In this document: positions 1-55,575 of the stretch, piece after piece
How the letters are laid out: each line of letters starts with the position of its first letter
Numbering within the stretch: position 1 is the stretch's first letter
Source of the DNA: Cyclobacteriaceae bacterium
GTDB taxonomy: Bacteria > Bacteroidota > Bacteroidia > Cytophagales > Cyclobacteriaceae
DNA: 64,000 nucleotides
Assembly: GCA_023151255.1 (NCBI GenBank)
Contig: JAKLJG010000004.1
Coordinates: 62,001 to 126,000, forward strand
Direction: 5' to 3'
Notes under the pieces: generated by a model
Told to the model about the DNA's origin: nothing
The model's input: the letters and a program-made list of their open reading frames with translations, nothing else
Database searches by the model: none
Program-made: the position numbers and the translations under genes

Positions 1-794
1 GAATTATTAAAGAAATGATACTGAAACGTTATATCACCATTTTCTCCTTTGTATAAAAACTGTCCATCTACATTCATCTTTCTACTGAATGAACAGTCTG
101 CTATGAATGCTTGATCAGGCCCCAGACGTTCTGGCCATTTCAATATTCCAAATTCCATTGTAAAGGATGGTGATTGGAAATAGTTTCGGACCTTAAAATT
201 CAGCAGCCCTTCTTTTTCAATTACTAAGAGAGCGCATCGTTTGGGAGATCGCTCAACGTACCTTCTTATTGTAGCGTGAACAGACCCACCGAATTGTTTA
301 GATAGAGCCAAAGGTGATCGAATTGTTAACTCTAATCGACTTGCTTCCTCATCAAACCTATCAAGTTGAAATAATGTACCAGATGCAAAAAAATTTGCTT
401 CGGCCTCAAAAGCAACTTGAGTGTCTGGGTCTAGCGTAGTGTCATCATCTTCATGGTGCTCGAATGTTTTCTGTTGCCACGGCAAGGCGTCATGGCCTAC
501 TTCATGTAACTGCACAAATCTTTGTCGATTTGCGTTTTGGCTCAAATCCAGATACACAACTTTCTCCCTGGTGTCAATAGCACCTCGAAGCTTTCTAAGT
601 GCGCTTTTCAGTGTTTCAGATGCCTTAGCTAGGTGGTTTTTTGGGATGTTACTTAAACAAGTTTCTCGATCAACTTTCAGTTCACAGTATTGCACAATCT
701 TATCCACCGGAGTGGGAAATACACCAAGTGACTTACTTTGTTTAAGAATGTCGAAGGATACATTTTCAATGTCCTTTATCGTTACCTTGTTCAT
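1..794 (-). CDS. ImmA/IrrE-type metallopeptidase, partial (runs off the left edge)
   Basis: Reading leftward from an ATG at 792-794, the frame stays open to base 3, so the C-terminus lies outside the window. A HExxH zinc motif (LHEVGHD, H97, E98, H101) is followed about 35 residues later by EAEANFFAS, the third-ligand region of ImmA/IrrE peptidases. Such peptidases cleave partner XRE repressors to relieve repression. The start lies inside the 3' end of the upstream XRE gene (29-base overlap), so the two are probably co-translated. Inference: the pair senses a stress and controls the divergent ubiquitin-like operon. Family assignment is firm; target and signal are unknown. Confidence 0.88.
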   Translation of the reverse strand, partial: MNKVTIKDIENVSFDILKQSKSLGVFPTPVDKIVQYCELKVDRETCLSNIPKNHLAKASETLKSALRKLRGAIDTREKVVYLDLSQNANRQRFVQLHEVGHDALPWQQKTFEHHEDDDTTLDPDTQVAFEAEANFFASGTLFQLDRFDEEASRLELTIRSPLALSKQFGGSVHATIRRYVERSPKRCALLVIEKEGLLNFKVRNYFQSPSFTMEFGILKWPERLGPDQAFIADCSFSRKMNVDGQFLYKGENGDITFQYHFFNN

Positions 795-1140
795 TCTTCT
801 TTTTAAATCTCAAGTATTTTAAATAACCCGCTAACTCGGATTCTTCTTCAGGAGTTAATCCTTCGGAAGACAGCGCAAATCCCGCTAATGTTTTTGGCCC
901 AGCTTGACCTTCCTTCTTCTCAACAATTCCTGCTTCACCAAGAAGAAATTCAAAAGCAATCCTGTACTGTTCGGCTAGCTTGTACAGAATGTTCGCTGAT
1001 GGCTTTTTGATCTTATTATTTTCAAGTTGACTTAAGTATGCGTTGGAAATTCCGGTTATCTCTTCTACCTGTCTTAGTGTTAGTCCCTGTGTTTCCCTAG
1101 CATCCTTTAGTTTTTCACCTAATGATTTCTGGGTTTCCAT
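766..1140 (-). CDS. XRE-family HTH repressor paired with ImmA/IrrE
   Basis: A 124-residue protein with an N-terminal helix-turn-helix (about residues 8-65: LKDARETQGLTLRQVEEITG and YLSQLENNK), the classical Cro/C1 pattern. The ATG at 1140 is chosen because the domain begins at once; an upstream in-frame extension to 1209 adds residues unlike the family and crosses the operator region. The charged, Lys-rich C-terminal tail may be the peptidase target. It is transcribed divergently from the operon at 1293, with repeated CTAAGT/ACTTAG sites between them. Likely role: autorepressor and repressor of the Ubl operon (inference). Confidence 0.9.
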   Translation of the reverse strand: METQKSLGEKLKDARETQGLTLRQVEEITGISNAYLSQLENNKIKKPSANILYKLAEQYRIAFEFLLGEAGIVEKKEGQAGPKTLAGFALSSEGLTPEEESELAGYLKYLRFKKKNEQGNDKGH

Positions 1141-1196
1141 ATATATGGTGGTTAATTTTTTCCGCCTGATTCCGCCTGCAAAGATACCCACCCATT

Positions 1197-1273
1197 CTAA
1201 GTAAAGCAAGCATTGCTAATTATAAATCTAAGTATAATTTTTCTTGCTAAGTGATTGCTTGATATACTTAGCA
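1197..1273. promoter_or_regulatory. Operator cluster between the XRE gene and the Ubl operon
   Basis: Four copies of the hexamer CTAAGT or its complement occur at 1197-1202, 1228-1233, 1247-1252 and 1266-1271. The last two form a perfect inverted repeat, TGCTAAGT (1245-1252) and ACTTAGCA (1266-1273). This is the expected layout for a dimeric XRE repressor. The binding protein is inferred from position, not shown. Confidence 0.6.
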
Positions 1274-1285
1274 TTGCTATATTTG
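1255..1285 (+). promoter_or_regulatory. Bacteroidota-type promoter of the Ubl operon
   Basis: TATATTTG at 1278-1285 fits the Bacteroidota -7 consensus TAnnTTTG. TTG at 1255-1257 is 20 bases upstream, within the usual spacing of the -33 element. The right arm of the operator lies between the two boxes, so a bound repressor would block polymerase. Transcription would begin within a few bases of the ATG at 1293, giving a nearly leaderless message. Confidence 0.55.
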
Positions 1286-1292
1286 AGCCGTT

Positions 1293-1799
1293 ATGAAAAA
1301 AGATAAACAAATCTACGTACACGGTGAAGGCCTCAAGGAGACCAAATTCATCGAAATTGACTCAGAAACAAAGATTTCTGAGATTATTAAGGAGTTTGAG
1401 GCAATCACCGGAGTTGCTTCAACTAAGGATGCCCCGGTAGAATGTTACGCGGATGATGATGACAACCCGTTAGACAGGTCATCAACTGCGGGTTCGAAAA
1501 AGATCGACAAGAGGTCGCACGTCCACTGCCACCGATGCAGGAAAGTAGAGGTAACTGTTACCTATAATGGTCGCGAAGAGAAATTCAGCTTCCCGCCACA
1601 AACCAAAGCCGAGAAGGTTTTTAAAAAGGCGATCAAGGAGTTCAAGATATCAGACTCTGATGCGAGCAATCTTGTCCTTCGTTCAGGCAATGGACAAGGG
1701 GAGATTCTTCAGGACGATGACCATATCGGTTCATTCGTGAATTATCCGGCTTGTCACCTCTCTCTTTACTTAACGCCAAAGAAACAAGTACAGGGATGA
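1293..1799 (+). CDS. Tandem ubiquitin-like protein (multiubiquitin family)
   Basis: A 168-residue protein with two consecutive ubiquitin-like beta-grasp units, about residues 4-75 and 84-165. Each has the strand-strand-helix pattern (KISEIIKEFEAITG and AEKVFKKAIKEFKI are the helices). The chain stops directly after a Gly (KKQVQG), so the terminal carboxyl needs no processing before activation. A Cys/His-rich stretch, HVHCHRC (76-82), joins the units. It is followed by E2, JAB and E1-like genes with 4-base or longer overlaps, the arrangement predicted for bacterial polyubiquitin-like conjugation operons. Inferred role: the modifier attached to targets. The multiubiquitin assignment rests on pattern and context. 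Confidence 0.85.
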   Translation: MKKDKQIYVHGEGLKETKFIEIDSETKISEIIKEFEAITGVASTKDAPVECYADDDDNPLDRSSTAGSKKIDKRSHVHCHRCRKVEVTVTYNGREEKFSFPPQTKAEKVFKKAIKEFKISDSDASNLVLRSGNGQGEILQDDDHIGSFVNYPACHLSLYLTPKKQVQG

Positions 1800-2269
1800 G
1801 TGTCGATAAGGGGATGTTCAAAAAACATGTGAGTGAAGCTCCGTTCCAAAATGGTGTTGACCAAGGCCGCTGGGAAATCCTGTCTAACGAGGATTTCCCG
1901 GAATGGCCAAAGGTCATCATCAGGATAAGAGCAAGGGCCAAAAAGGACAACCCAGATTTTTTCTCTTTTCGATTTGATCTCAACGACTATCCATCGACAC
2001 CTCCCACATGCTGTATTTGGGATGAGGAGAAGAAAGCAATACTGGAAGATTCTAAATGGCCCAAAGGGTCAACCTATGTTTCAAAAGTCTTTAATCCAGG
2101 ATGGAAGAAGGAGGCACTTTATTGTCCTTGTGACCGAATAGCAATAGCCGGTCACGACAATTGGAAGACTGACCACCCAGACTACTATTGGAAATCTGAT
2201 TTCACAATAGTTAAGTATCTCCTATTCATTTATGATCTTTTAAACTCAGATGATTATGCCAACAGTTAA
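1796..2269 (+). CDS. Prokaryotic E2 (ubiquitin-conjugating)-like protein
   Basis: A 157-residue protein. The start at 1796 forms an ATGA overlap with the Ubl stop; an alternative ATG at 1751 would overlap far more. The E2 core is recognisable: YPSTPP (65-70), where E2 proteins have YPxxPP, then an LYCPCDR segment with C110 and C112, then GHDNW and a C-terminal helix. C110 or C112 is the probable thioester cysteine. It would take the activated Ubl from the E1 encoded two genes downstream and pass it to a target or to itself. No separate E3 is seen. Confidence 0.82.
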   Translation: MSVDKGMFKKHVSEAPFQNGVDQGRWEILSNEDFPEWPKVIIRIRARAKKDNPDFFSFRFDLNDYPSTPPTCCIWDEEKKAILEDSKWPKGSTYVSKVFNPGWKKEALYCPCDRIAIAGHDNWKTDHPDYYWKSDFTIVKYLLFIYDLLNSDDYANS

Positions 2270-2729
2270 GGAGTTAATAATAGTGGATTCAGTGTGGGAG
2301 GAATTGATCCACGATCTGCGGAAAAGAGGAGATGGCGAGCGCGAGAGCGGTGCATTTCTTCTTGGAAAAGTTGGCGGAAATCTGATATCCGAATATGTAT
2401 GCTATGACGACCTTGATCCCAACTGTTTGGATCATGGAATAATCACGTTTGATGGGAGTGGCTACGTTCCTCTATGGCAATTGTGTAAAGAGAAGGGGCT
2501 AACTGTTCTTGCGGATGTCCATACTCATCCCGGTGAGTGGGTGGGTCAAAGTAGGTCAGATTCAAATCATCCAATGATCGCACAATCAGGACATATCGCA
2601 CTTATTCTTCCTGAATATGCTCAGGCTAAAAATTTGACCCTTATGGATGCTGGTATCTATGAGTATAAAGGTGACAAGAAATGGAAAACAATAAAACCTA
2701 AAGGAGGACGGGTGAGACTTTCAAAATGA
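2250..2729 (+). CDS. JAB/JAMM-domain isopeptidase (deubiquitinase-like)
   Basis: A 159-residue protein with the complete JAMM zinc-peptidase signature: Glu in GERESGAF (E32), then HTHP (H91, H93), S101 and D104 in the H-x-H-x7-S-x2-D spacing. Such enzymes remove ubiquitin-like modifiers or trim their C-termini. Because the Ubl already ends in Gly, removal from targets is the likelier job. The ATG at 2250 overlaps the E2 stop by 20 bases; an ATG at 2256 is equally possible. Its stop overlaps the E1 start (ATGA). Confidence 0.9.
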   Translation: MIMPTVKELIIVDSVWEELIHDLRKRGDGERESGAFLLGKVGGNLISEYVCYDDLDPNCLDHGIITFDGSGYVPLWQLCKEKGLTVLADVHTHPGEWVGQSRSDSNHPMIAQSGHIALILPEYAQAKNLTLMDAGIYEYKGDKKWKTIKPKGGRVRLSK

Positions 2730-4111
2730 ATACGAATTTAACGGAAGATAATCTTAACCGCCTTGCGTTGGGTATCATTGAAAAAAATAAATGCTCATAT
2801 CAGGAGGCTTTGAAAATCTTGGGGTCGCTCAAATTATATGTAAGGTGCGGAGAAGCAATCCGAAAGTCAGGAAGCCTGCAAGCTGCACTGCTTACCATTG
2901 TGAATACAGGGAAGCGAGCTTTTTTGGGTGGTGTAAATGTTGCCATGCCCAATAGTGTGGCTTTAAAATTACAGTGGCCATTTTCCGCTGACTTAAACAC
3001 AGCAGTAACAAATCTCGGAGCTACCGTTATTCCGGAAGCAGAAATTGGAAAGAATTTCTCAATCCATCTGGGTTTATCAGCATCAATCGATGATAACTCA
3101 ATTGAAGTAGTTTGCAACGGTTGGAGTGGAGGTATATCAAATGGAATTGACCGGATAAATTTAAATCAAGATGTTGACTTCGCACTGGGCGGAATTTTAG
3201 GAGGTGCTATTGCCGTCTCTGCCGTTTTCATGAAGCTGACTAATATCAATCCATCATCGTGTGATCATTCGAATGGGGTATCATTGTGGCGGCCAGACCT
3301 GAGTTGGACATCAGTGGAAGCACAAGGGCCGAAGCTTAAATATCTACCAAAAAGAGTTTGGCTTCTTGGTCTTGGTCACCTCGGACAAGCATACGCTTGG
3401 ACTCTTAGCATGCTGCCGTACGCTAAGCCAGAAGATTTCAATCTGCTTCTTCAAGACTTTGATCGAATAACAGATGGAAATTATTCTGCCGGGCTGCTAA
3501 CCGATAAACAAAATTTTACACCTCGGAAAACAAGACATTGTGCGAATTGGCTTGAGACCTCTGGTTTTGTGGCCACGATTACTGAACGTAAATATGATTC
3601 AAGCACAATACGAACTGACGAAGAACCATATCTTGCTCTGTGCGGCTTTGACAATGCCAAATCGAGATTACCGCTTGAAGGAAGTGGTTTTGATCTTGTT
3701 GTGGAATCGGCCATCGGCAGTGACGTGTCTGATTTTGACTCCATCATTACGCACACTTTTCCGGGTGCGAATAAAAAGCCATCGGATATCTGGAAAGATG
3801 AAACTGAGAACAACATAAGTGAGGCATTAATCGATGCTATGCAAAAGGAGGTGAAAAAAGAAGAATGTGGTGTTCTTGTAACTAACCTTGCTAACAAAGC
3901 AATGTCTGCTTCCTTTGTCGGAGCGGTTGCATCTGCGTTGGTAGTCAGTGAAGTATTAAGAGCCCTTCATGGTGGAATAAGATTTGAATCAATTGTAGTT
4001 CGACTTAGAAGTCTCAAAAATATACGGACATCTGCTATTGGCGAATATTCAACAGAATTGGGAAGGAATGGATTTACCATGGCCGCTCCGGTTGAACAAG
4101 TGCGACAATAA
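2726..4111 (+). CDS. E1/ThiF-like adenylyltransferase
   Basis: A 461-residue protein. The C-terminal half is a ThiF/E1 Rossmann domain: nucleotide loop GLGHLG (215-220), acidic ribose-binding segment LLLQDFDRI (D244/D246), then N252, R267 and R270 in the usual positions of the ATP site, and a conserved distal helix (residues 384-415). C306 (ALCGFDN) and C381 (EECGV) are candidate thioester cysteines. The N-terminal 200 residues form a poorly recognised domain that may bind the Ubl or E2. Expected reaction: ATP-dependent adenylation of the Ubl C-terminal Gly and transfer to the E2. The start overlaps the JAB stop by four bases. Confidence 0.85.
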   Translation: MNTNLTEDNLNRLALGIIEKNKCSYQEALKILGSLKLYVRCGEAIRKSGSLQAALLTIVNTGKRAFLGGVNVAMPNSVALKLQWPFSADLNTAVTNLGATVIPEAEIGKNFSIHLGLSASIDDNSIEVVCNGWSGGISNGIDRINLNQDVDFALGGILGGAIAVSAVFMKLTNINPSSCDHSNGVSLWRPDLSWTSVEAQGPKLKYLPKRVWLLGLGHLGQAYAWTLSMLPYAKPEDFNLLLQDFDRITDGNYSAGLLTDKQNFTPRKTRHCANWLETSGFVATITERKYDSSTIRTDEEPYLALCGFDNAKSRLPLEGSGFDLVVESAIGSDVSDFDSIITHTFPGANKKPSDIWKDETENNISEALIDAMQKEVKKEECGVLVTNLANKAMSASFVGAVASALVVSEVLRALHGGIRFESIVVRLRSLKNIRTSAIGEYSTELGRNGFTMAAPVEQVRQ

Positions 4112-4141
4112 ACCTAAATTGGTAAACCAAACCTAAATCAA

Positions 4142-5197
4142 ATGAAGGATAACGCAGCGCATAATCTACTTGGCCTAACTCTCAAATCAGGATGGAAGGT
4201 GGTCGAAAAAATTACTAAGACGGCTAATTCAACAGGTTCCTTTTTTTCCGTTTGCTATAAGGTTGAGAAAGATGGTGAGTTGTGTTTCCTGAAGGCTTTT
4301 GATTTTAACAGATTTTTGGGCCTTTCAAAAATGGAAGACCCAACGCGTTCAGTGGTTGATATAATCAGTGAAATGACGAGTGCTTATAAATATGAACGAG
4401 ACCTGTCAAACCACTGTAAGAACCAGCATGTTACTAAGATCGCTTTTGTAAGAGAGGCCAGCGAGGAACACGTAGAAGGTTTCACATATTCGTTCGTTCC
4501 GTATTTAATTTTTGATCTTGCTGATGGTGATGTTCGAATGCAGTTGGCTTTCTCTGACCAACTGGACTTTGCTTGGAAACTTGGCTCACTACACGACATC
4601 GCTGTGGGGCTTAGACAATTGCATCAGATCGAGGTCTCACATCAGGACATAAAACCTTCCAATATTTTGTTGTTCAATCGTAAATCAAAACTTGGTGATA
4701 TCGGAAGGTCCCTTTGCAAAACTTTGAATAGTCCATACAGCGACTATACATTCACTGGTGATGCTAACTATGCTCCGCCCGAAATCATGTACGCCTATTA
4801 CGAAAATGATTGGCATAAACGAGTTTTTGCAACTGACTGTTACCTACTTGGAAGTATGGTTGTATTCTACTTTAGCGGAATTAGCATGTCTGCATTATTG
4901 ATGAAAAATCTTGAACCAAATTTTCGACCTGAAAGTTGGCAAGGTGACTTCGCACAAATAAAACCGTATTTAGCTGACGCATTCTCTAAAGCCTTATCTG
5001 AATTTGGTCAATGTATAGAGAATGAGTTTTTCAGATCAGAACTCACGCAAACAATTGAATACCTCTGCTTTCCATTCCCAGAGAAAAGAGGCCATCCAAT
5101 TGACATTTCACAAAGAGGCAACGGATATAGCCTAGAACGGTTTGTCTCAAAATTTGATTTGCTCTTCAGAAGAGCAGAACTTAATATAATGAAATAA
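4142..5197 (+). CDS. Ser/Thr protein kinase in the Ubl operon
   Basis: A 351-residue eukaryotic-type kinase domain with no membrane segment. Seen: the ATP-site Lys in CFLKAF (K51), the catalytic loop HQDIKPSN (167-174; D169, K171, N174), a metal-binding DIG (186-188) in place of DFG, and PPE (212-214) in place of APE. The Gly-rich loop is weak (TANSTGSFFSV). All three catalytic residues are present, so activity is plausible. It begins 30 bases after the E1 gene with no terminator between and ends one base before the next start. A kinase in a Ubl-conjugation operon is unusual; it could mark targets, regulate the E1/E2, or act as an effector (inference). Confidence 0.82.
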   Translation: MKDNAAHNLLGLTLKSGWKVVEKITKTANSTGSFFSVCYKVEKDGELCFLKAFDFNRFLGLSKMEDPTRSVVDIISEMTSAYKYERDLSNHCKNQHVTKIAFVREASEEHVEGFTYSFVPYLIFDLADGDVRMQLAFSDQLDFAWKLGSLHDIAVGLRQLHQIEVSHQDIKPSNILLFNRKSKLGDIGRSLCKTLNSPYSDYTFTGDANYAPPEIMYAYYENDWHKRVFATDCYLLGSMVVFYFSGISMSALLMKNLEPNFRPESWQGDFAQIKPYLADAFSKALSEFGQCIENEFFRSELTQTIEYLCFPFPEKRGHPIDISQRGNGYSLERFVSKFDLLFRRAELNIMK

Positions 5198-5198
5198 C

Positions 5199-6758
5199 GT
5201 GGCAAATATTTTTGAAAATAAGGATCGAAGAGTCATTCCAAACTGGCGCAGTTTCAAGAAAACTGCGGTGTTGGGTGAGCTTGATAATAATATTGGCCGC
5301 GTCAACAAACAGCCAATCCGGAGCCTCATATCTATTGATGAATACATTGAAGATTGGTCCCATAATAAAACAATTCCTCATGCCGGAGACTTACTGAGTT
5401 CTGCAATAGTGAATGGTATAGCCAATAACGAACATGTATTGGAGGCAGCTCAGTATATTCTTGGTAACAGCGCTAGTTCAACATTGCCGCAGATATCGCT
5501 GGCAAAAAGATTTGTAACCAGCAATGACAAACTATTAACCGACAAACTAGAAAACATAACTATCAGTGAATTTGCAAGTTTGGTTGATCCAAAACTGATA
5601 TGGAATAAAATTAAAGAAATAAAGGCTGCTATCATTGGATTCCCATATAATCCCATTTTCTATGTGGAATTGGCAAGAAATTATTCAATAGTAGGGCAAG
5701 AAAAAAAAGCTCTACGTGCAATGCATATCGCTTTAAATTTATCACCAGACAATCGATTCATACTCCGGTGTGGGTCCCGGCTCTTTGCACACTATGATGA
5801 AATTGGTATCGCTCATGATATCTTGCGTAAAACTTCACTTGCCGGTATAGACCCTTGGATTACATCTGCGGAGATTTCGCTAGCGACTTTAAGAGGACGG
5901 TCGTCAAGGTTTTTGAAAAAAGGGTTTGAAATGATTGACTCAAACAACTTTTCATCCTCTAACATTACGGAACTTGCAAGCGCCATCGGCACAGTAGAAC
6001 TCATTGATGGCAGTCTTAAGAAAAGCAAGCAATTCTTTAAGAAGTCTTTATTGGCTCCTAACGACAATTCACTTGCCCAAATCGAATGGGCTTCATCCAA
6101 GGAGCCGTCATTGAGAATTGACATCAATGAATTTCACGTAAAGCATAATTTTGAGGCTCAAGCTCTTGAGAATTTTCATAGTAATCATTTAACTGAATGT
6201 ATTGATAATACTTTCAGATGGTTTTTGGATATGCCTTTTTCCAAAAGGCCTGTAATGCTGGGAGCCCACATTGCGAACTCTTTCTTAAATGATCAAGAAA
6301 CGTCTCGTGGCTTTCTCAAAGCAGGGTTAATTTCTCATCCAAATGATCCTCAAATAATCAACAACCTAGTTTATTCGCTGGCTCTTGAAAACAAAATAGA
6401 GGAGGCAATGAAATTTATGAATCTCCTTACCGATAACCCAACGGGTGCTGCTGACATAACAAAAATTTGTCTAAAGGCAACAAGAGGGTTACTTTGTTTT
6501 CGTAGTGGTGTCCCTGAAATAGGAAGAAGCTTATACCTAGAAGCAATCGAAAAAGCGAAGGACATTAAAAATCAGTATTACAATTGGCTTGCAATATTGA
6601 ACTATGCCAGAGAAGAAATTCTTGTAAAATCAAATGAAATAGAAACTATTATGGAAACAGTTGCTCGTATTCCGGACAATACCTCGGCTGGAGATGTGAA
6701 TAAACTTAAGAAAGAAGTGGTGGAGCTTCATGCCAAGTCCAAAGTAGCGGTGAGTTAA
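5199..6758 (+). CDS. Helical (TPR-like) repeat protein, last gene of the Ubl operon
   Basis: A 519-residue soluble protein of alternating amphipathic helices. TPR-like units are seen around residues 150-220 (NPIFYVELARNYS followed by ALRAMHIALNLSPDN) and 375-410 (NDPQIINNLVYSLALE). There is no signal peptide or catalytic motif. A GTG start at 5199 is one base from the kinase stop; no better ATG precedes the conserved-looking N-terminus. The stop overlaps by four bases the stop of the convergent methylase-helicase gene, marking the operon end. Probable role: scaffold or substrate recruitment for the kinase/Ubl enzymes (inference). Not recognised as a named family. Confidence 0.7.
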   Translation: MANIFENKDRRVIPNWRSFKKTAVLGELDNNIGRVNKQPIRSLISIDEYIEDWSHNKTIPHAGDLLSSAIVNGIANNEHVLEAAQYILGNSASSTLPQISLAKRFVTSNDKLLTDKLENITISEFASLVDPKLIWNKIKEIKAAIIGFPYNPIFYVELARNYSIVGQEKKALRAMHIALNLSPDNRFILRCGSRLFAHYDEIGIAHDILRKTSLAGIDPWITSAEISLATLRGRSSRFLKKGFEMIDSNNFSSSNITELASAIGTVELIDGSLKKSKQFFKKSLLAPNDNSLAQIEWASSKEPSLRIDINEFHVKHNFEAQALENFHSNHLTECIDNTFRWFLDMPFSKRPVMLGAHIANSFLNDQETSRGFLKAGLISHPNDPQIINNLVYSLALENKIEEAMKFMNLLTDNPTGAADITKICLKATRGLLCFRSGVPEIGRSLYLEAIEKAKDIKNQYYNWLAILNYAREEILVKSNEIETIMETVARIPDNTSAGDVNKLKKEVVELHAKSKVAVS

Positions 6759-9700
6759 ATTCTGATTTTTCGCTTCGGCCTCATAAAAGTCTTTTCAGAT
6801 TCAGGTGCACCATCTTCGACAACTGAAGGACTTAGCTCTGGCTCCCGCGAAAAGGCCTTCTCCAATCTCGCAGTGAGCTGGTCAATCTGATGTTTCAAAT
6901 CCTGGATGAGGGATTTCTCCTTGAAGTCAAGCGTTAGTTCGTGCTTGTACGTATCGATCTTTTTTTGAAAGGTTTGGATCGATTCTTTGGTGTTGTCGAT
7001 CACTTTTGGAATCCGTTTGATGGAGTCTGTCATGTAACGACCTGCCAGGGCAGGATTCTCATTGAGCTTTCCATCGGCATAATTGTAGATCATCCCGGAT
7101 GGACCGGAAACGTAGACTTTCGACAGAACCGGATTGTAAAGGAGTTTGAAATCCAACAGCCCCGCTATTTCCGTTTCCTTGGCAACTCCTTTCTGTCTTA
7201 ACTGCGCAATAGTTGCATGTAATTGCTCACCGGCCACTTTTTTATCTTCAATTTCTTTTCCACCAATAAGTACTGGTACCTTTTCAATATCGATGGATTT
7301 AATCGGTTTCCAGTCGGACTCCAGTTTCATCCATGCGGACTCTTTATGTTTTAGGTCGCGAGTGTTCATATCAACGTAGAACGATGCTTCCGATTTTCGC
7401 TTCAGAAAGACCTGGTAGCTGCGCTCAAGGTCGTATAGTTTCTTTTCCAGCTTCACCTTCTCCAGCAGATCAGTATTGCCACTGAGAAGGGCAACGTATT
7501 CTCCGAAGTTCATACCACCCTCCTGATCGAGCGCACCTTCATCGATCTTACGCTGGTCGATAGAACTGTTCTTAATCTGGCTGATGAATTTCTGCTTGTT
7601 GGAAAGTATGTTGAACTGGTAGGCATCCAGTGTACGATTGACAGCATAGACATAGTTCCGGACCGTATTTTCCCGAAACTCCTTCGCTGTCCTGTTGCCC
7701 TGTCTACCACCACGACCAACGCGTTGTTCAAAATCACTCGGCCGCCAGGGAATGTCGAGATGGTGCATAGCGATCACTCTTTCCTGCACGTTAACACCTG
7801 TACCCAATTTCTTAGTGCTGCCGATCAGCACCCGTACATTGCCGTTGTTGACATCTTTGAATAACTTTTCCTTTTTGGTTTTGGAGTCATGATCGTGAAT
7901 GAACTGAATATCCTCCGGTCGTAGGCCGTGCTGTTCCACCAGTACGCGTTTGATTTCAGCATACAAGTTAAAACCGCTCCCATCCGGTGTGCCAATGTCG
8001 CTAAAGATGAGTTGTGTTCCCTTGTAACGCTCGCTATCCTTGTATTCTGAAGCAACCGTTTCGCACATCTTTGCCATTTTCCCATCAGGCTCGAAAGCAT
8101 ATTTGAGTGGATCGATCAGGCGCATATCAATGCTCATCTTGCGGGCCAGGTTGGTGGCAATGAGCATAAACGCATTCTTTTCATTTTCACCTAATATAAG
8201 ATCAACGTAGACGGGATTTTTTGTCTTGGTAAAATTGATGAGCTTTTGTGTGTACTCTTGCTGGTCTTCAGTGGGATCAATATTAACCACGATATTTTCA
8301 ACACGTGGCTTTTCGATCTTCAGATTACCATCGGTTATGACGTGTGTTATTTCTGCATAAAACCTCGCCAACTCCGGAACTTTAATGAATTCCCGGTAGC
8401 GCTCCTTCAACTTTAATTCGTTCGTCACGGTGAATTCATAAGTGGAGCTTTTCCTGGCATACATCTTTGCCCACGCATCAAATGAATTGATGCTCAGCTC
8501 GTTTAATTTATCCGGTCGTAAATATTTGAAGAGCAGATACAATTCAACAAGACTGTTGCTGATCGTAGTACCTGACAAGAACGTGGCGCCTTTGTCTCCG
8601 CCTTTTTTCTCCTGGATGGTACGGATCGCCAGTTCAAGATTAAGTGCCCGTTGACTGCCGGTAGGATCGCCTAACCCTGCAACTTGCTGATGGCGAGTAG
8701 TGAAGTGAAGATTCTTAAACGCCTGGCTCTCATCGACAAAAATGTGATCGAAGCCCATCTTTTCGAAGTCCAGTATGTTCTCATCCCGGCTGATCGCTGC
8801 ATTGGCGATCTCAAGCCTCACTTTTAAATTTTGCTTTCGCCCCTCAAGTCCTTTCAATACTCGTTTCGACAATGAACGATCTTCCGATACTGCTTTCAGA
8901 TCATCTTCAAGGTTTTTCAACTCCTGTTCCAGTATTTCTTTCTTCACGCGCGGTGACTGGGGGATTGCCTGAAACATTTCGTGGGTCATGATCACGGCAT
9001 CCCAGTCGTTAGAGGCAATGCTGGCGAAGAGCCGCTGCCGTTTCTGTTTTGTGAAATCCTTCTGAGGGTCAGGCGCAAGGACTTTGGCTGAAGGATAGGC
9101 TTTTAGGAAATCTTTAGCTACATCGATTACATTAGACCTCATGCAAATGATCATCGGCTTTTGTGCAATGCCGAGCCTGCGCATTTCCATTGCGGCCGCG
9201 ACCATGACCAATGTTTTCCCGGCACCGACCTTGTGGTCAACAATGCCGCCATCCTGCTGTAGCAGCATCCAGATGGCATCTTTCTGATGCGCGCGCAGCG
9301 CAAAGTGTTTCAGTCCGGTCAGTTGGAGGTGTGAGCCGTCATAGTTACGCCTTACTGCGTTATTGATGTTCCGGTTGTACAGTTCTTCAATACGGCCTGC
9401 AATGTCCTGTCGTGTACTTAAGAAATTCTCAAACTCATCCTTCACCTCTTTGATCTTCATTTCCACGTTCTTAATTCCATCCTGATCGGGTTTGTATTGT
9501 GGAGGATTGGTTCCGTCAATTCTGATCTGAAGGTAAGGCTGGGTATCAGCCATGGCATACTCCATGATCTTGCTGCCGGAAATCCTCCCGTTATGGATGG
9601 TGGCTGCGTACGTGATGCTCTCTTCGTTGCTGTACCTTGATACATTCACAAGATATTGATCTGCTGATTCCAAATATTTGAGTTGCGTTTTCTCTTTGAA

Positions 9701-12005: not shown

Positions 12006-12053
12006 AGCGAAGATGGGATTCTACCAATTCTGAAATTCACAAGTTGGTACCAA
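12006..12053 (-). promoter_or_regulatory. Operator/promoter-like element, copy 1
   Basis: AGCGAAGATG (12006-12015), 16 unrelated bases, then a 22-base block at 12032-12053 containing CACAAGTTGGTACCAA. The same two blocks with the same 16-base spacing occur at 55528-55575. This copy lies 58-105 bases upstream of the 84-residue gene start. The palindromic half is imperfect here. Likely a binding site for a shared regulator. Confidence 0.55.
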
Positions 12054-12148
12054 GGTGGGGGATTTAATTGGTGAGCTTCCGATATTGCATGAAGTGATAG
12101 ATTGCTACAATATCCAATGAGCTTTCGTAAATTGATGAGTGTTAGGAA

Positions 12149-55527: not shown

Positions 55528-55575
55528 AGCGAAGATGTTAGAGGTTGACGGAAGAAATTCACAAGTTGGTACCAA
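55528..55575 (-). promoter_or_regulatory. Operator/promoter-like element, copy 2
   Basis: AGCGAAGATG (55528-55537), 16 bases, then the 22-base block 55554-55575. Here the core is a perfect 18-base palindrome, CAAGTTGGTACCAACTTG (55562-55579). Lies 18 to 69 bases upstream of the excisionase-like gene. Same spacing as the copy at 12006-12053. Confidence 0.65.

What the first reader, a model, noticed from the sequence alone, without database searches (positions are those of the whole stretch)
1197..1285. Ubl operon promoter embedded in XRE operators, with an adjacent ImmA/IrrE protease
A perfect TGCTAAGT/ACTTAGCA inverted repeat overlaps a TAnnTTTG promoter whose start is almost at the ATG. A repressor-peptidase pair faces it. 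This suggests protease-triggered derepression of a Ubl system, with a near-leaderless message.
Basis: partly seen in the sequence, partly recalled or inferred. Interest (0 to 1): 0.6.

Follow-up and report, generated by a model that had tools for sequence, protein, structure and literature searches.

The report
Damage-triggered switch of bacterial ubiquitin-like operon
A small gene pair, a DNA-binding repressor and a protease, faces a ubiquitin-like (Bil) antiviral operon on what looks like a mobile element, and a repressor-binding site that is conserved between distant bacteria sits on the operon's promoter; this looks like a new case of a known DNA-damage-triggered on-switch for bacterial defence.

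Summary
Upstream of a complete Bil (bacterial ISG15-like) operon, bilABCD at 1293-4111 plus a kinase pair, lies a divergent XRE/ImmA-IrrE pair whose best PDB relatives are CapH and CapP, a repressor and protease known from CBASS. The convincing element overlaps it: an 18-bp imperfect palindrome, TGCTTGATATACTTAGCA, at 1256-1273. A motif learned from nine alphaproteobacterial CapH loci, eight of them annotated multi-ubiquitin operons, ranks it first in the 64-kb window (29.0 bits; next 12.7). The second-ranked site, 1195-1212, covers capH's own promoter. In six divergent Bacteroidota CapH loci a TAnnTTTG box follows the best forward site by 4 or 8 nt in 6 of 6. The predicted start is 1290-1291, 2-3 nt before the ATG (0-1 nt in one close relative), but two more distant relatives have leaders of about 34-38 nt. 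Most likely CapH represses bil and itself, and ssDNA-activated CapP cuts CapH. CapH/CapP beside ubiquitin-like (Bub) operons is already in print, so this is a new member of a known kind. Binding, cleavage and transcription start are untested.

The parts
1..794 (-). CapP-like ImmA/IrrE (M78) metallopeptidase; 264 of 289 residues lie in the window, the C-terminus continues upstream of the window
   Evidence: Pfam PF06114 8.3e-08; PADLOC capP 5e-20; best PDB hit CapP 7t5t 8.4e-08; HEVGH motif and full ORF in L002 5925-6794
766..1140 (-). CapH-like XRE repressor, 124 aa
   Evidence: HTH_19 3.1e-13; PADLOC capH 3.1e-15; best PDB hit 7t5u 3.3e-10; helix segment ISNAYLSQLE shared with relatives
1179..1186 (-). 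-7 box TATCTTTG of the capH promoter; 38 nt between box and ATG
1195..1212 (-). Operator O2, TGCTTGCTTTACTTAGAA, 8 nt before the capH -7 box; predicted autoregulation
   Evidence: second-best site of the window, 12.7 bits; the third, elsewhere in the window, scores 12.6, so O2 is weak on score alone
1228..1236 (.). Possible extra half-site CTAAGTATA between O2 and O1
   Evidence: perfect 9-bp complement of 1263-1271; no PWM support (not listed)
1245..1252 (.).
   Evidence: no PWM support
1256..1273 (+). Operator O1, TGCTTGATATACTTAGCA, about -34 to -17 of the predicted bil start
   Evidence: best of 64 kb at 29.0 bits with a motif trained on alphaproteobacterial loci; 0 of 1000 shuffles reach it; only exact match to TGCTTGNNATACTTAGCA in the 3.17-Mb genome
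1255..1257 (+). TTG, candidate -33 element (20 nt before the -7 box)
   Evidence: the -33 motif is weak in F. johnsoniae (PMC6847099)
1278..1285 (+). -7 box TATATTTG of the bil promoter
1290..1291 (+). Predicted transcription start; leader of 2-3 nt
   Evidence: 4-5 nt from -7 box to start in F. johnsoniae (PMC6847099); inference
1293..1799 (+). bilA, tandem ubiquitin-like protein, 168 aa, ends in a Gly that is invariant in 25 aligned sequences
   Evidence: PADLOC BilA 1.5e-41; model pLDDT 93.3; ISG15 and di-ubiquitin among top folds; alignment
1796..2269 (+). bilB, E2-like (DUF7665)
   Evidence: PADLOC 6.7e-51, Pfam PF24702 1.5e-42
2250..2729 (+). bilC, JAB peptidase (HTHP...S..D visible in sequence)
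   Evidence: PADLOC 5.1e-59; Pfam Prok-JAB only 0.0052, below its cut-off
2726..4111 (+). bilD, E1-like
   Evidence: PADLOC 9.5e-135; GLGHLGQAY loop invariant in 5 sequences; no Pfam family
4142..5197 (+). Protein kinase PDC-M71A, 30 nt after bilD, probably same transcript
   Evidence: PADLOC 1.7e-153, Pkinase 2.5e-12
5199..6758 (+). PDC-M71B partner of the kinase (called TPR in my notes; no Pfam match), 1 nt after the kinase gene
   Evidence: PADLOC 1.2e-189; no Pfam family

Best explanation
1195-1285 is the control region of a Bil antiphage operon run by a CapH/CapP-type switch. A CapH dimer binds the 18-bp palindrome O1 (1256-1273), between the -33 and -7 elements of the bil promoter, and blocks it; it binds O2 (1195-1212) at the capH promoter and limits its own synthesis. 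When infection or DNA damage yields single-stranded DNA, the CapP metalloprotease is activated and cuts CapH; both promoters open and bilABCD plus the kinase pair are made from an mRNA that starts about 2-3 nt before the bilA ATG. Shown here: genes, layout, conserved sites, fixed site-to-box spacing. Inferred from family knowledge: binding, ssDNA activation, cleavage, induction. Predicted only: start site.
For: Families: CapP and 7t5u (which I recall as CapH) are the best PDB hits, PADLOC capP/capH and BilA-D, ISG15-like fold of BilA. Operator: a motif found by EM in nine alphaproteobacterial CapH loci (log-likelihood 117.7; 20 mononucleotide-shuffled sets, with fewer restarts, at most 52.4) ranks O1 first and O2 second in the 64-kb window. 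Of 15 loci not used for training, 12 have a best site reached by at most 4 of 1000 shuffles (window and L038 are near-identical). Geometry: a TAnnTTTG box lies 4 or 8 nt after the best + strand site in 6 of 6 divergent Bacteroidota CapH loci, against 34 of 2944 positions overall in eight loci, true ones included. In 6 of the 9 training loci the best + strand site contains an exact TTGACA, in the others TTGATA, TTGACG, TTGTAA. The helix segment SNAYLSQ is shared by the loci with good sites except L141 (SNGYLSQ); L135 and L142, which lack it, have poor sites. O1 is conserved in L038 and L039 and is the only exact match in the genome. Of 15 CapH relatives opened on plasmids, 9 face ThiF/ubiquitin-like operons. 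Mechanism of the family: PMC13373217, PMC10904395, passages read.
Against: L125, a Bil locus with a good CapH/CapP pair and the SNAYLSQ segment, scores only 5.3 and 5.7 bits (99 of 1000 shuffles do as well). L043 has CapH but no detectable CapP. O2 hardly stands out on score alone. The motif was learned after I had seen the shared sequence by eye. My CapP model failed (mean pLDDT 36.6), so the ssDNA-sensing domain is not shown. The near-leaderless start is not conserved in L043 or L125. A weaker TAnnTTTT box at 1235 could give a longer leader. Most Bil loci examined lack this regulator pair. L126 has a CapH/CapP pair and the site, but I see no ubiquitin-like operon in front of it (by eye, not scanned).
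Confidence: 0.82

Rival explanations
1. The XRE/peptidase pair belongs to the conjugative element (ImmR/ImmA-like) and controls transfer genes; its place next to bil is incidental.
For: The region lies among transfer-like genes (recognised by eye from the translations, not scanned); the XRE protein also matches the ICEBs1 regulator 7t8i (3.1e-06); ImmR/ImmA pairs control ICEs (recalled; PMC10233336 seen as a search listing).
Against: Best PDB hits are CapP and 7t5u. The pair faces Bil operons in L038, L050, L115 and L125 and ubiquitin-like operons on unrelated plasmids. The exact operator occurs once in the genome, at the bil promoter.
Confidence: 0.08
2. CapH is the regulator, but the trigger is not ssDNA: CapP answers another signal, or CapH is removed in another way.
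For: L043 has CapH without a detectable CapP; CapH-like repressors in Argonaute/Piwi loci L124 and L136 have no CapP beside them; CapP is a distant relative of the solved one (E 8.4e-08) and could not be modelled.
Against: CapP and PprI are both reported to be ssDNA-activated (PMC10904395; PMC13373217).
Confidence: 0.2
3. The operator is genuine but the mRNA is not near-leaderless; transcription starts further upstream.
For: TAnnTTTT at 1235; leaders below 10 nt are only about 3.7% in B. thetaiotaomicron (PMC7366714), leaderless mRNAs 5.5% in F. psychrophilum (PMC9723704); related loci L043 and L125 have 42 and 39 nt between box and ATG.
Against: TATATTTG fits TAHHTTTG exactly, lies 4 nt after the operator as in L038 and L126 (8 nt in L043, L125, L127), and stays in L038 and L039.
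Confidence: 0.2
4. The repeats are chance in an AT-rich intergenic region.
Against: 0 of 1000 shuffles reach O1's score with a motif trained on alphaproteobacterial loci; genome-wide uniqueness.
Confidence: 0.02

Closest known systems
CapH+CapP regulator (CBASS and other defence operons; Lau et al. 2022, recalled; described in PMC13373217 and PMC10904395)
   Same: HTH repressor followed by an M78 protease, divergent from a defence operon; closest solved relatives by sequence
   Different: Here it faces a Bil operon; CapH differs from a CBASS-linked one (L142) in the helix segment (SNAYLSQ against SKSYLWE)
Bub operons with CapH+CapP or CapW (219 of 544, PMC13373217)
   Same: Ubiquitin-like operon under this kind of regulator; most opened CapH relatives on plasmids (9 of 15) sit at ThiF/multi-ubiquitin operons, with the same operator in the eight used for training
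   Different: Target operon here is Bil (BilA-D); that the plasmid operons are Bub in the authors' sense was not tested
Bil / BilABCD (bacterial ISG15-like)
   Same: All four genes in order, tandem Ubl, E2, JAB, E1 (PMC11354881 passages)
   Different: Extra kinase/PDC-M71B pair downstream; CapH/CapP control
PprI/DdrO (IrrE) of Deinococcus
   Same: ssDNA-activated M78 protease cutting an XRE repressor (PMC10904395)
   Different: Damage regulon there (recalled), a single local operon here
CapK+CapS (PMC13373217)
   Same: Damage-responsive control of Bub and a few Bil operons (5 Bil cases)
   Different: Kinase and STAS repressor, not protease

Membership tests
Bil system | bilA-B-C-D gene set in order | tested here: met
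   PADLOC E 1.5e-41 to 9.5e-135
Bil system | BilA with two ubiquitin-like domains and a C-terminal Gly | tested here: met
   TM (by query length) only 0.35-0.43 over both domains in the 50 rows shown, so the relative orientation of the domains differs or is uncertain
Bil system | protection against phage, Ubl conjugation | not testable with these tools
   no experiment
CapH+CapP regulator | XRE repressor plus M78 protease with HExxH, adjacent and divergent from the operon | tested here: met
CapH+CapP regulator | CapP C-terminal GAF-like ssDNA-sensing domain | tested here: inconclusive
   length fits (289 aa, against 291), but the model failed
CapH+CapP regulator | CapH binds the operon promoter | tested here: inconclusive
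   conserved operator by comparison only
CapH+CapP regulator | ssDNA-stimulated cleavage of CapH | not testable with these tools
   needs purified proteins
Bacteroidota sigma-A promoter | TAnnTTTG -7 box | tested here: met
   fits the stricter TAHHTTTG (PMC6847099)
Bacteroidota sigma-A promoter | TTG/TTTG near -33 | tested here: inconclusive
   TTG at 1255-1257, TTTG in L038; the element is weak in F. johnsoniae
Leaderless mRNA | 5' end at or within a few nt of the start codon | not testable with these tools
   predicted only; box to ATG 7 nt (window, L039) and 5 nt (L038)

The most novel reading that the evidence does not exclude
One CapH lineage (helix segment SNAYLSQ) and its near-invariant 18-bp operator form a portable promoter switch that travels between phyla: the same site serves Bil, multi-ubiquitin (Bub-like) and Argonaute/Piwi loci. 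In alphaproteobacterial loci the operator carries a TTGACA-like -35 box; in Bacteroidota it sits 4 or 8 nt before TAnnTTTG, so the operator stays and the promoter type changes with the host. In this element the switch has also been merged with a near-leaderless start, which could favour translation of the defence message under stress.
Probability: 0.3. Interest if true: 0.6.

Novelty: new member of a known kind. Interest (0 to 1): 0.42.

Why it matters
It gives a concrete, testable operator for CapH-type repressors, with two predicted sites and a fixed register to the promoter, and it ties a Bil antiphage operon to a damage-sensing switch that is described in print next to CBASS and Bub operons. 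If right, ubiquitin-like antiphage conjugation in this host is induced, not constitutive, which matters for anyone who tests such systems from their native promoters. The pattern TGCTTGAyAwACTTAGCA (my summary of the sites) could also be used to find further defence operons under the same control.

Tried and rejected
Sigma-70 promoter scan of 700-7000: no hit in the capH-bilA intergenic region. Rfam (gathering thresholds) and tRNA scans of the window: nothing. Viral-contig scan with BilD: nothing confirmed; phages with CapH: no match; plasmids with the DNA of 1000-7000: no match. Searches of sampled genomes: BilD family 54 of 395 genomes of the phylum at E<=0.001, but only the own genome and G126 at E below 1e-100, the rest mostly weak matches over a part of the profile; BilD 5 of 245 in the family, own included, one of them at only 7.9e-4; CapH 2 of 395 at E<=1e-15; CapP 4 of 395 of the class at E<=1e-20. 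CapP structure: 4 sequences, mean pLDDT 36.6, not used. ICE-regulator reading: considered and ranked low. Kinase/PDC-M71B as a fixed part of Bil: rejected; the pair also stands without Bil matches within the 16 kb of L147 and L148 and without annotated Bil genes in L149 and L150, and among the 81 Bil loci (some cut soon after bilD) it was found only in window, L038 and L039.

Literature: Lau 2022 is not held, and searches for BilA-D, Bil system and Bub/CapH/Bil listed no primary Bil paper, so I cannot say whether CapH/CapP next to Bil is already in print. Searches did not show it, but 17, 51, 90 and 105 listed only a part of their hits. PMC13373217 (passages only) reports CapK+CapS for five Bil operons; in those passages I saw nothing on CapH+CapP at Bil.

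Choices that affect counts: the training set (9 loci) was picked after I had seen the common motif by eye; window and all Bacteroidota loci were left out of it. CapH starts for L134 and L124 were set only approximately. Only 80 of 149 Bil relatives were returned. Only 15 of 47 plasmid records with CapH relatives were opened; H38 (L134) bears no annotation. The classes rest on profiles grown from the window's proteins and on longest ORFs, and undercount HTH partners: L075 has a divergent HTH + M78 pair and L095 an HTH-M78 fusion, both filed there as 'M78 only'.

Full report
What is there. The window starts in a gene cluster on contig C39 of a 3.17-Mb genome. On the minus strand lie an ImmA/IrrE peptidase (M78; 289 aa, 264 of them inside the window) and, just upstream of it, a 124-aa XRE protein (766-1140). 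On the plus strand follow bilA, bilB, bilC and bilD (PADLOC E 1.5e-41, 6.7e-51, 5.1e-59, 9.5e-135), then a protein kinase and a partner protein (PDC-M71A/B). The gaps after bilD and after the kinase gene are 30 and 1 nt, and the terminator scan gives no + strand terminator at these junctions, so one transcript is likely. The best solved relatives of peptidase and XRE protein are CapP (7t5t, 8.4e-08) and the HTH protein 7t5u (3.3e-10), which I recall as CapH. BilA folds with high confidence (mean pLDDT 93.3) into two ubiquitin-like domains; linear di-ubiquitin and ISG15 dominate the 50 fold hits shown.

The repeat TGCTAAGT/ACTTAGCA and the box TATATTTG are where stated. By shuffling, such a repeat occurs in 147 of 2000 versions of the region and a box in its last 40 nt in 83 of 2000, so neither would convince alone.

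Relatives. A scan of genome contigs with an alignment of five BilD proteins gave 149 relatives, 80 of them returned. L038 and L039 (91% and 90% identical BilD; Cyclobacteriaceae and Flammeovirgaceae MAGs by title) share the cluster; L039 is cut 209 bases before bilA. L043 has CapH but no CapP that I could detect. Of 15 CapH relatives opened on plasmids, 9 face annotated ThiF/ubiquitin-like operons, one (L142) a CBASS operon, one (L136) stands on the same strand before a Piwi-domain gene, one (L134) has no annotation and three (L133, L135, L141) show no such operon by annotation.

The operator. An EM search for an 18-bp motif in the 220 bp upstream of capH in nine alphaproteobacterial loci gave TGCTTGACATACTTAGCA (log-likelihood 117.7; 20 shuffled sets, with fewer restarts, reached at most 52.4). 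Applied to the window, which was not in the training set, it puts 1256-1273 first (29.0 bits) and 1195-1212 second (12.7), with 12.6 next. Of 15 loci outside the training set, 12 have a best site reached by at most 4 of 1000 shuffles; L125 (99), L142 (43) and L135 (537) do not. L135 and L142 also lack the SNAYLSQ helix segment; L125 has it and is a real exception on score; L141 has SNGYLSQ and 12.7 bits. The exact pattern TGCTTGNNATACTTAGCA occurs once in the genome; with up to two mismatches six places match, O1 and O2 among them (the reversed control pattern: one). The target is therefore probably local.

Register. In the six divergent Bacteroidota loci (window, L038, L043, L125, L126, L127) the best + strand site is followed by TAnnTTTG after 4 or 8 nt in 6 of 6. 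On the capH side a site is followed by the box after 8 nt in 4 of 6 (weak sites of 5.7 and 6.0 bits in L125 and L127), after 9 in L043 (site -0.3 bits), and L126 has TACCTTTA instead. In the nine training loci the site holds TTGACA (6) or a near match (3) at the place of a -35 box; 17 nt on stand CATATT, CATCTT, TATCTT or TATCTA in 5 of 9 and nothing clear in the other 4. The operator thus seems to sit on the polymerase site in both promoter types.

Start site. In F. johnsoniae 4-5 nt separate the box from the start in the probable promoters (PMC6847099, passages). That gives 1290-1291, a leader of 2-3 nt, and 0-1 nt in L038. Short leaders are uncommon in the phylum: in F. johnsoniae 87% are longer than 10 nt, in B. 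thetaiotaomicron 3.7% are below 10 nt (PMC7366714, passages), in F. psychrophilum 5.5% of mRNAs are leaderless (PMC9723704, passages). L043 and L125 have 42 and 39 nt between box and ATG (counted in the sequences), so the trait is local. capH itself has 38 nt.

Mechanism. CapH+CapP pairs are reported to control neighbouring immune operons, CapP being activated by ssDNA to cut CapH (PMC13373217; PMC10904395; passages only). The same source reports CapW or CapH+CapP at 219 of 544 Bub operons. The parsimonious reading is the same switch on a Bil operon, with autoregulation through O2. Binding, cleavage and trigger are inferred.

Verdict. The finding is real and mostly right in its interpretation. 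It is a new member of a known kind; what it adds is an explicit operator, conserved between phyla, with a fixed register to two different promoter types.

Noticed in passing
L056 3001-6426 and 42 further loci among L054-L114: 43 of 81 Bil loci, none of them Bacteroidota by record title, have a same-strand ORF of more than 900 aa with an M78-like match just upstream of bilA; the one scanned against Pfam (L056) is an M78 + UvrD helicase + PD-(D/E)XK nuclease fusion. A possible fifth Bil gene that again brings an IrrE-type protease domain.
   Followed up: partly
window 12038-12059 and contig C39 61790-61811 (211 to 190 bases before the window's first base): The 22-bp direct repeat CACAAGTTGGTACCAAGGTGGG is found at just two places in the 3.17-Mb genome (up to 2 mismatches), bracketing the CapP-CapH-Bil-kinase cluster and the 1648-aa gene; a 3-mismatch copy lies at 55560; near copies in L038 and at the end of L039. 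Could be an insertion trace or a shared promoter element.
   Followed up: partly
L124, L136, L133: A class II Argonaute locus (L124) and a Piwi-domain locus (L136) carry a CapH-like XRE repressor with the same SNAYLSQ segment and a copy of the same operator (19.1 and 30.6 bits), with a Cas4-like or PD-(D/E)XK nuclease gene in place of CapP; L133 (15.1 bits) has the same gene order but no Piwi annotation.
   Followed up: partly
window 4142-6758; L147, L148, L149, L150: The kinase + PDC-M71B pair looks like an independent two-gene module that also stands elsewhere without Bil.
   Followed up: partly
L128, L132, L134, L137, L138, L139, L140: Sites in these alphaproteobacterial loci recur at 28-30 bp steps, mostly in opposite orientation, with a weaker third one (8.0-9.9 bits) in L134, L139 and L140, which suggests cooperative binding.
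   Followed up: no
L034, L035, L036: In some Bacteroidota Bil loci bilA and bilB are fused in one frame (L035, L036), or bilC and bilD (L034).
   Followed up: no
L040, L041, L042 (about 4690-6470): In Flavihumibacter, Limnovirga and one Bacteroidetes MAG two conserved genes (not scanned against families) and an M78 protease gene face bilA in place of CapH+CapP.
   Followed up: no
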